A DNA stretch of 33,809 nucleotides from Spirochaetes bacterium ADurb.Bin218. Lineage in GTDB: Bacteria; Spirochaetota; UBA4802; UBA5550. The position numbers and the translations under genes are program-made. The first letter of the stretch is position 1. Each line of letters opens with the position of its first letter. Positions 5,521 to 19,148 of this stretch are shown here, in pieces. The stretch covers positions 1 to 33,809 of the forward strand of contig MWCI01000035.1 in the NCBI GenBank assembly GCA_002069965.1, in the 5' to 3' direction. The notes beneath the pieces are model-generated. The model had not been told where the DNA came from. It searched no databases and worked only from the letters and a program-made list of their open reading frames with translations.

Positions 5521-5535
5521 ATAGATTTATCTTCA

Positions 5536-5561
5536 GGGTGCCATCTGGCACCCTTTTTTTT
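5536..5561 (+). terminator. Rho-independent terminator of the padR operon
   Basis: GGGTGCC (5536-5542), loop ATCT, GGCACCC (5547-5553), then eight T residues. This is a perfect 7-bp G+C-rich stem. Confidence 0.95.
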
Positions 5562-5625
5562 ATCACTTTAAATACTACAATTTTTACTTTTACATTATTT
5601 CATTATAACTGAAACAATATCAAAA

Positions 5626-5746
5626 CAGTATTTATTCCTTAACTTCTTTTAAAAGAAAAATACTCTATATATCCCCGAAGCCTTCGGCTTCGGGGATAAT
5701 ATTTTCTTGATTTTACACTAAAAAGTATATTAAAGAATAATTACTG
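5626..5746 (+). mobile_element. MITE-like element, copy 2, with 9-bp target duplication
   Basis: This 121-bp element has terminal inverted repeats CAGTATTTATTCCTTAA (5626-5642) and TTAAAGAATAATTACTG (5730-5746), which pair at 15 of 17 positions. It is bracketed by a perfect 9-bp direct repeat ATATCAAAA (5617-5625 and 5747-5755), the footprint of transposase-mediated insertion. The centre is a perfect 13-bp hairpin, TATCCCCGAAGCC / GGCTTCGGGGATA (5670-5682 and 5686-5698). The internal block 5712-5728 (TTTACACTAAAAAGTAT) is shared with copy 4 at 16 of 17 positions, and AAAATACTCTA (5657-5667) with copy 3. It encodes no protein and lies between two convergent genes, a safe landing place. It looks the youngest copy. 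The mobilising transposase is not in the window. Confidence 0.85.
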
Positions 5747-5769
5747 ATATCAAAATAAAATTTTTGTGG

Positions 5770-6543
5770 TCAGTTATTTTTGATCTTACTCATCTTGAGA
5801 GCTGCTCCCATTGCAAGGAGTGTCTGGTTTCTGTCTTCCATGTTAAGAGCCTGCTCCATACCGCCAGCATCTATATTCATGTTTATGGCCTCTTTTGTAA
5901 GGCGCAAACCCATGTGATTTTTGGTCATCATTATCCTTGCATACTCCATTGCAGCATCATGAAGCTTGTCTCTCTCTACAATCTTTGATACAAGCCCAAG
6001 ATGATAGGCCTCTTCTGCAGTCATGAACTTTCCTGTATACATAAACTCATAGGCTCTTCCTGCACCAATCATACGTGGAAGCAAATAGCTGCATGCCATA
6101 TCTGCTCCACCAAGCCCTATATTGATATAGGCAGCACTGAATTTAGCATCAGGGCTTATGACTCTAATATCCGAAGAAAGAACAAAGCTAAAGCCCTGGC
6201 CTGCTGCAGCTCCATGAACTGCTGCAATTATTGGCTGAGGTGCTCTCCTCATGTGGAGATTTATCCTTGCAAGCCGGGCTTGAAATCTGTAAAACTCCTC
6301 TGTGGTCATCTTTGGTGCTGTTTCTAAAGACTCCTTCATATCAAGGCCTGCACAAAATCCCTTGTCTCCGTTACCTTTGAGAATAACTATCACAGTTTCA
6401 AGATCATAAAGTCTTTCTCTCCAAAAATGCTCCAATTCTTCCATCATAAGATGATTAACAGCATTATAGCTTTCTGGCCTGTTAAGGCAAAGCTGCATAA
6501 TACCCTTTTCCAGAACTGATACTTCTATGGTTTTGTAGTCCAT
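5770..6543 (-). CDS. Enoyl-CoA hydratase/isomerase (crotonase) family protein
   Basis: This 257-residue crotonase-fold enzyme acts on an acyl-CoA. The oxyanion-hole segments are DKGFCAGLDM (about 60-70) and AAVHGAAAGQGFSFVLSSDI (about 108-127), followed by INIGLGG and LLPRMIGAGRA typical of the fold. The two glutamates that make enoyl-CoA hydratase active are not seen: GQGFS lacks one, and Asn replaces the acid near INIGL. This favours an isomerase, hydrolase or other branch rather than a beta-oxidation hydratase. No acyl-CoA dehydrogenase or ligase is nearby. A G-rich Shine-Dalgarno (AGGGGGG in the coding sense) precedes the start. It is monocistronic, divergent from the chalcone-isomerase-like gene. 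Confidence 0.8.
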   Translation of the reverse strand: MDYKTIEVSVLEKGIMQLCLNRPESYNAVNHLMMEELEHFWRERLYDLETVIVILKGNGDKGFCAGLDMKESLETAPKMTTEEFYRFQARLARINLHMRRAPQPIIAAVHGAAAGQGFSFVLSSDIRVISPDAKFSAAYINIGLGGADMACSYLLPRMIGAGRAYEFMYTGKFMTAEEAYHLGLVSKIVERDKLHDAAMEYARIMMTKNHMGLRLTKEAINMNIDAGGMEQALNMEDRNQTLLAMGAALKMSKIKNN

Positions 6544-9751: not shown

Positions 9752-9870
9752 CAATGTTAATTCCTTAATTATTATAGGGAATAAAATACTCTAATATCCC
9801 CAACCAATGGCGGCTGGGATATTGATAATAGTATTTATTGCTATAAAAGATCCCTTAAGAATTATTACTG
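9752..9870 (+). mobile_element. MITE-like element, copy 3
   Basis: This 119-bp family member has ends CAATGTTAATTCCTTAA (9752-9768) and TTAAGAATTATTACTG (9855-9870), imperfect inverted repeats. The flanks TTAAAAAA (9744-9751 and 9871-9878) are an 8-bp direct repeat, compatible with a target duplication but low in complexity. The central stem is AATATCCC/GGGATATT (9793-9800 and 9816-9823) with an inner CC/GG part. AAAATACTCTA (9783-9793) is shared with copy 2. It ends 28 bp upstream of the metF start, so metF transcription must start inside it, cross it, or begin in the short remaining gap. Confidence 0.75.
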
Positions 9871-9898: not shown

Positions 9899-10789
9899 GT
9901 GCATATTAGAGAAATTTTAGAAAAACATAAAATATCCTTCAGTTTTGAATTTTTTCCTCCAAAGACAGAAAAGGGCTCTGAGGCACTATTTAAAACAATA
10001 AATGAGCTTGTGCCACTAAATCCAGCCTATGTAAGTGTCACCTATGGTGCTGGAGGTTCCTCACGGGATTTAACTCATGATCTCATAGTCAAAATTCAAA
10101 ACCAGACAAATCTAACTGTTGTTTCACATCTAACATGCGTTGGTTCAACAAAAGAAGAAATACACAACATCCTTTCACGCTATAGAGAAAATAATATTAT
10201 GAACATAATGGCTCTAAGGGGCGATCCTCCCGCTGGTGAGTCTAAATTTAAAAAGGTTGAAGGGGGATTTGAATATGCCTGCGAGCTTGTAGAGTTCATA
10301 AAAAAGCACTTCCCCTATATGGGGATAGGTGTTGCTGGATATCCAGAGGGTCACCCTGAGACTCCAAACAGAATCAAAGAAATGGATAATCTCAAGCGCA
10401 AGGTTGATGCAGGAGCTGACTATATTTGCACACAGCTTTTTTTTGATAATAATGACTTTTACGATTTTAGAGAAAGATGTGAAATTGCAGGTATCCATGT
10501 CCCTATAATTGCAGGGATTATGCCTGTAACCTCTATAAAGGGGATGTATAAAATGGCAGAGCTTGCCCTTGGAACAAGAATTCCTGCAAAGCTGCAAAGA
10601 GCTCTACTGAGGGCTGAGGATGACAGCTATGTTGAAAAAGTTGGTATCCACTGGGCTACCCAACAGGTTTATGATCTCATTGATAATGGCGTTAAGGGGA
10701 TTCATTTCTATACACTTAATCAATCTAAGGCTACAAGAGAGATTTATGCCTCAATTGGGATCTCAAACTCAGAATCTTTAAATAAGTAG
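9899..10789 (+). CDS. metF: Methylenetetrahydrofolate reductase
   Basis: This 296-residue FAD-dependent TIM-barrel enzyme reduces 5,10-methylene-THF to 5-methyl-THF (or runs in the oxidative direction of the C1 pathway). Glu17 in FSFEFFPPKTEKG is the catalytic acid, Asp109 is in the ALRGDPP motif contacting the flavin, and TYGAGGSSRDLTHD and GVAGYPEGHPE are further family signatures. Length is normal for bacterial MetF without the eukaryotic regulatory domain. The start is GTG at 9899 with GGTGAG about 6 nt upstream. No methionine-synthesis genes or recognisable SAM riboswitch are near; the leader contains MITE copy 3 instead. Confidence 0.95.
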   Translation: MHIREILEKHKISFSFEFFPPKTEKGSEALFKTINELVPLNPAYVSVTYGAGGSSRDLTHDLIVKIQNQTNLTVVSHLTCVGSTKEEIHNILSRYRENNIMNIMALRGDPPAGESKFKKVEGGFEYACELVEFIKKHFPYMGIGVAGYPEGHPETPNRIKEMDNLKRKVDAGADYICTQLFFDNNDFYDFRERCEIAGIHVPIIAGIMPVTSIKGMYKMAELALGTRIPAKLQRALLRAEDDSYVEKVGIHWATQQVYDLIDNGVKGIHFYTLNQSKATREIYASIGISNSESLNK

Positions 10790-19020: not shown

Positions 19021-19148
19021 TAATGTATAATCCGATATAAATATAAACTTTATCTCCTGAGTTTTTCAGGCAAAACATTGTATATTGCTATCATCAGGAG
19101 ATATAAGTCATTACTTTACACTAAAAACTATTTCAGGAATTATTACTA
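19021..19148 (+). mobile_element. MITE-like element, copy 4
   Basis: This 128-bp family member begins TAATGTATAATCC and ends GGAATTATTACTA, with decayed inverted ends and no clear target duplication. The central stem TATCTCCTGA/TCAGGAGATA (19051-19060 and 19094-19103) is perfect over 10 bp and differs from copy 2 by paired changes on both arms. The block TTTACACTAAAAACTAT (19115-19131) differs from that of copy 2 at one base. TTTACA with AATTAT 17 bp later (19138-19143) could act as an outward promoter toward the 19236 gene; this is inference. Confidence 0.7.

What the first reader, a model, noticed from the sequence alone, without database searches (positions are those of the whole stretch)
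5617..5755. Young MITE with perfect 9-bp target duplication
The 121-bp element 5626-5746 has 17-bp terminal inverted repeats (15 of 17 paired), a perfect 13-bp central hairpin and identical 9-mers ATATCAAAA on both sides. It carries no gene, so a transposase elsewhere must mobilise it. A 9-bp duplication is compatible with several IS families and cannot name the parent.
Basis: seen in the sequence. Interest (0 to 1): 0.7.

Follow-up and report, generated by a model that had tools for sequence, protein, structure and literature searches.

The report
Spirochaete MITE targeting phased A-tracts
A 121-base gene-less jumping element sits between two genes of an uncultured spirochaete; it is one of about sixty copies in that genome, belongs to a family spread patchily through the whole bacterial order, and its landing sites are evenly phased A-runs that should bend the DNA.

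Summary
It is a MITE. The same genome holds at least 59 copies; 26 of 46 full-length copies keep a perfect 9-bp duplication. The same convergent gene pair lacks the element in three relatives. Related elements occur in 10 of 46 genomes of this Spirochaetota order, in two families. 'Young' is not supported: this copy is mid-ranked in divergence (19th of 46). No parent transposase was found. The hairpin decays after insertion and is not kept by compensation. An apparent preference for divergent gene pairs is explained by the supply of AT-rich DNA. New result: the target is not just AT-rich. AnTn tracts phased at about 10.4 bp lie at -10, 0 and +10 around the duplicated 9-mer, in three genomes independently. 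This suggests a transposase that selects intrinsically curved DNA. Ordinary as a kind of element; a new family with an informative target rule.

The parts
5617..5625 (.). left copy of the 9-bp target duplication, ATATCAAAA
   Evidence: direct reading; identical to 5747-5755
5626..5642 (+). left terminal inverted repeat, CAGTATTTATTCCTTAA
   Evidence: 15/17 against the right end; conserved in the family
5626..5746 (+). MITE, 121 bp, no ORF of 20 aa or more
   Evidence: consensus of 40 copies
5670..5698 (+). central hairpin: 13-bp perfect stem, TTC loop
   Evidence: intact in only a few of the 46 copies examined
5730..5746 (+). right terminal inverted repeat, TTAAAGAATAATTACTG
5747..5755 (.). 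right copy of the 9-bp target duplication, ATATCAAAA
4483..5520 (+). left neighbour: nitronate monooxygenase family protein
   Evidence: Pfam PF03060, E 2.6e-57; orthologues used to find the element-free locus
5535..5561 (+). host intrinsic terminator of the left neighbour; also present at the element-free loci
5770..6543 (-). right neighbour, convergent: enoyl-CoA hydratase/isomerase family protein
   Evidence: Pfam PF00378, E 4.2e-40
9752..9870 (+). second, older relative of the element in the window (119 bp; eroded repeats; flanks ATTAAAAAA / TTAAAAAAA)
   Evidence: nhmmer 23.0 bits, E 2e-6 over the window

Best explanation
The element is one copy of a family of miniature inverted-repeat transposable elements of about 120 bp. 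A DDE-type transposase encoded elsewhere cuts at the CAGTA...TACTG ends and joins them to target DNA with a 9-bp stagger; gap repair then makes the 9-bp duplications. The target complex prefers DNA with A-runs and T-runs (AnTn) phased on the helical repeat and centred on the 9 bp, that is, DNA expected to be intrinsically curved; this places most copies in AT-rich intergenic DNA, often between divergent genes. After insertion the copy decays neutrally: G+C positions mutate towards A+T and the central hairpin falls apart. Shown: family, copy number, ends, 9-bp duplication, element-free locus, phased target signal, loss of the hairpin. Inferred: DDE chemistry, trans mobilisation, curvature as the property that is read.
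For: At least 59 places in this genome and 40 aligned copies, most flanked by identical 9-mers; 26/46 perfect and 9/46 with one mismatch. Same gene pair without the element in G001, G002 and G007. Related copies: 149 matches in G007, 76 in G011, 7 in G002; 10 of 46 genomes in the order. Target signal in G000: observed 5.43 against -0.26 with sd 0.97 when phases are randomised on the same sites (none of 20,000 reach it); G007 p = 0.00025; G011 p = 0.00015. The flanks alone (more than 5 bp from the centre) also pass: p below 1/20,000, 0.002 and 0.004. Flanks also beat controls matched for the central 9-mer and base composition. Precedent: MuA prefers bent or flexible target DNA (PMC5357137); bent targets reported for IS2 and, cited there, for IS10 (PMC3299598).
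Against: No transposase with matching ends was found, so the enzyme is hypothetical. Curvature was not measured or modelled; the signal is a phased A/T asymmetry. Controls for G007 and G011 came from G000 intergenic DNA; the phase test does not depend on them. A host protein that binds phased A-tracts could guide insertion instead of the transposase reading shape.
Confidence: 0.8

Rival explanations
1. It is a functional element kept by selection: the hairpin works as a bidirectional terminator or RNA structure.
For: Stable 13-bp hairpin followed by a T-rich tail, scored as terminator-like; a GC-rich central stem also occurs in relatives.
Against: Left and right stem halves of the same copy pair no better than halves swapped between copies (269 vs 263 +- 6.7 Watson-Crick pairs, p = 0.20; with G-U p = 0.05). 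Core G+C positions outside the lineage-variable ones decay like G+C positions in the arms (15.9% vs 13.6%). A 72-bp derivative lacks the hairpin. The left gene already has its own terminator, also present where the element is absent.
Confidence: 0.07
2. It is a regulatory element that spread because it serves promoters: most copies lie upstream of genes.
For: 30 of 51 copies with both neighbours called lie between divergent genes, against 28% of intergenic regions (p = 3e-6). A sigma-70-like match reads outward at the right end.
Against: Divergent regions hold 52% of the AT-rich 9-mers available in intergenic DNA, so the excess is not significant (p = 0.19). In tandem contexts the orientation is balanced, 9 to 6.
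Confidence: 0.08
3. It is a REP/BIME-like palindromic repeat moved by a Y1 (TnpA-REP) transposase.
For: Short, GC-rich central palindrome, many copies, intergenic.
Against: Well-conserved terminal inverted repeats and 9-bp target duplications point to DDE transposition; such duplications are not a feature of Y1 elements (general knowledge).
Confidence: 0.03

Closest known systems
MITEAba12 (Acinetobacter; PMC6382973)
   Same: 113 bp, AT-rich, no coding sequence, 16-bp imperfect TIRs, 9-bp duplications, mobilised in trans
   Different: its TIR is GGCTTTGTTGCACAAA and matches a resident IS (ISAba12); here the TIR is CAGTATTTATTC and no parent was found; its copies show little divergence, here they are 81-94% identical to the consensus
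ERIC / Correia-type MITEs (review PMC10969869)
   Same: short, intergenic, tens to hundreds of copies per genome, spread over related taxa
   Different: different ends; 9-bp AT-rich duplication here against TA duplications of ERIC and Correia (general knowledge)
IS10 / IS50 group of IS4 (general knowledge)
   Same: 9-bp duplication; a bent IS10 target has been reported (cited in PMC3299598)
   Different: different ends (CTGA...); the only DDE_Tnp_1 genes found in this genome and in five relatives have other ends
IS256 family
   Same: 8-9 bp duplication (general knowledge); IS256-like transposase genes or fragments are present in this genome
   Different: no MITE-type end near these genes

Membership tests
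MITE | short (about 50-600 bp), no transposase gene | tested here: met
   121 bp, no ORF of 20 aa or more
MITE | terminal inverted repeats | tested here: met
   15/17; conserved over the copies
MITE | target-site duplication of constant length | tested here: met
   9 bp: 26/46 perfect, 35/46 with at most one mismatch
MITE | multiple dispersed copies | tested here: met
   59 places, spread over contigs as expected by chance (p = 0.08)
MITE | insertion into a formerly empty site | tested here: met
   same gene pair without the element in G001, G002 and G007; the exact single 9-mer could not be aligned because the intergenic DNA has diverged
MITE | a parent IS with the same ends (usual, not required) | tested here: inconclusive
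   none found; draft genome and a limited set of transposase models, so absence is not proven
IS256-derived MITE | ends match the resident IS256 | tested here: not met
IS4/IS5 (DDE_Tnp_1)-derived MITE | ends match a resident DDE_Tnp_1 element | tested here: not met
IS1- or IS1595-derived MITE | family transposase present | tested here: not met
   no match in four genomes, controls positive
ISLre2-derived MITE | family transposase present | tested here: inconclusive
   no match, but no control genome was positive either

The most novel reading that the evidence does not exclude
An order-wide, long-lived MITE family whose unknown transposase picks targets by intrinsic DNA curvature, reading three phased AnTn tracts over about 30-40 bp instead of a base sequence; natural insertions then serve as a map of curved DNA in uncultured spirochaetes.
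Probability: 0.5. Interest if true: 0.55.

Novelty: new member of a known kind. Interest (0 to 1): 0.4.

Why it matters
Bacterial MITEs with 9-bp duplications are known, but this family (ends CAGTATTTATTC) matched nothing in the plasmid and phage collections, nor in the 120 virus contigs examined, and the paper searches turned up no description of it. It spans an uncultured Spirochaetota order. Its target rule is statistically sharp and repeats in three genomes, so it gives natural evidence that a transposition complex follows phased A-tracts. That is testable in vitro once the enzyme is found.

Tried and rejected
Parent search: Pfam DDE_Tnp_1, IS256, ISLre2, IS1 and IS1595 models; solo ends examined for neighbouring transposase genes, only host genes or deletion derivatives seen; TIR pairs 0.5-4 kb apart with an 8-9 bp duplication in all loci held, none. 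Virus contigs gave 120 matches to a 16-base end pattern (scan stopped at its limit); none resembled the MITE. Plasmids and phages: no match. Rfam: nothing near a gathering score. Compensatory maintenance of the hairpin: not supported. Hypervariable core as a special process: mostly explained by G+C decay, lineage differences at eight stem positions and loop flips. Divergent-promoter preference: explained by AT supply. Clustering on certain contigs: not significant. Hairpin pairing or arm divergence as a clock against duplication mismatches: no correlation.

Full report
What is there. The element at 5626-5746 is 121 bp, 28% GC, has 15/17 inverted repeats at its ends, a perfect 13-bp central stem with a TTC loop, and ATATCAAAA on both sides. 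No ORF of 20 aa or more overlaps it. It is the only place in the window with identical flanking 9-mers, matching ends and this size.

Copies. A BLAST search of the window's own genome (3.03 Mb, 160 contigs, 97% complete) listed 40 places at 80-100% identity, before weak matches of the complementary strand. A sequence-only model built from 35 copies gave 107 matches, in which I counted 59 separate listed places down to E about 1e-14. They are spread over the contigs as expected by chance (p = 0.08; some contig lengths were interpolated). Flanking 9-mers are identical in 26 of 46 full-length copies and differ at one position in 9 more, allowing a boundary shift of one base.

The same locus elsewhere. 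The left neighbour (nitronate monooxygenase family) and the right neighbour (enoyl-CoA hydratase family) lie next to each other, convergently, in two genomes of the same genus and in G007 of another genus. Those intergenic regions keep a terminator-like hairpin after the left gene but have no element and no pair of ATATCAAAA. The intergenic DNA is too diverged to show the single 9-mer itself.

Distribution. G007 shares contig lengths and element positions with the MAG Spirochaetae bacterium HGW-Spirochaetae-5, so the host belongs to Spirochaetota. G007 has 149 matches, G011 76 and G002 7. In 46 genomes of the order, 10 have matches, including one genus of another family (G025 with 48). The family is old, patchy, and amplified separately in several lineages (the last is inference).

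Age. Copies are 81-94% identical to the consensus. The window copy differs from the reference in 4.4% of arm positions, rank 19 of 46. The mean duplication mismatch suggests about 3.6% change per copy since insertion, so a perfect 9-mer is unremarkable. 'Young' should be dropped.

The hairpin. Alignments suggest a strikingly variable centre (69% majority against 94% in the arms). Most of this has ordinary causes. G+C positions decay at 13.6% in the arms and 15.9% in the non-lineage core. Eight stem positions and the loop differ between sub-lineages, and the loop occurs in both orientations (GAA 14, TTC 13). Copies L103 and L104 are near-identical apart from an inverted loop. Stem halves within a copy pair no better than halves from different copies. 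So the stem is not visibly kept by selection after insertion. Perfect but different stems in some copies (window, L103/L104, L135) suggest that source copies had intact palindromes; that is inference. A 72-bp derivative has lost the centre and kept both ends.

Position. Thirty of 51 copies lie between divergent genes. A 400-kb background sample shows that divergent regions contain 43% of intergenic length and 52% of AT-rich 9-mers, so target supply explains this (p = 0.19). The gene calls are simple ORF calls.

Target rule. Joining the flanks around one 9-mer gives the empty site. Over 40 sites the A-minus-T profile is a wave with a period near 10.4 bp: A-runs followed by T-runs centred at -10, 0 and +10. 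Phase-randomised controls on the same sites give -0.26 +- 0.97 against an observed 5.43 in G000. G007 (13 sites) gives p = 0.00025 and G011 (10 sites) p = 0.00015. The flanks alone remain significant in all three, and against composition- and centre-matched controls. Phased A-tracts in register with the helix are known to curve DNA (stated in PMC4132750). MuA prefers bent targets (PMC5357137) and bent targets are reported for IS2 and IS10 (PMC3299598). I therefore infer that the transposition complex favours curved DNA. A host A-tract-binding protein as guide is not excluded.

Parent. DDE_Tnp_1 genes and IS256-like genes occur in this genome but have other ends. No IS1 or IS1595 transposase was found in four genomes with working controls; ISLre2 was not found, but without a positive control. 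No transposon-sized pair of these ends was seen in any locus held. Draft MAGs often lose multi-copy IS, so the parent may be missing from the assembly.

Verdict. A real MITE and a new family of a known kind. The unusual part is the sharp phased A-tract target rule.

Noticed in passing
window 9752-9870: A second, more eroded relative of the element (CAATGTTAATTCC...GAATTATTACTG), with a near-duplicate AT-rich flank, upstream of the methylenetetrahydrofolate reductase gene (9899-10789).
   Followed up: partly
window 19088-19148: Weak match (13.9 bits, E 0.001) to the right arm of the element; possibly a further remnant.
   Followed up: no
L058 2418-2489 (G000:C48): 72-bp deletion derivative: both ends kept, central hairpin lost, flanking 9-mers CCAAAATTT/CTAAAATTT.
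   Followed up: partly
L103 and L104 (G000:C9 and C7): Two sister copies whose perfect stems are identical but whose loop is inverted (GAA against TTC), suggesting flipping at the palindrome.
   Followed up: partly
L071/L197 (G002:C28) and L072 (G001:C387): An old copy with similar right-hand flanks in two species of the same genus, apparently an insertion that predates their split.
   Followed up: no
G000:C31 12286-12630 and 16019-16363: Two DDE_Tnp_1 transposase genes of the same kind about 3.7 kb apart; no MITE-type ends.
   Followed up: partly
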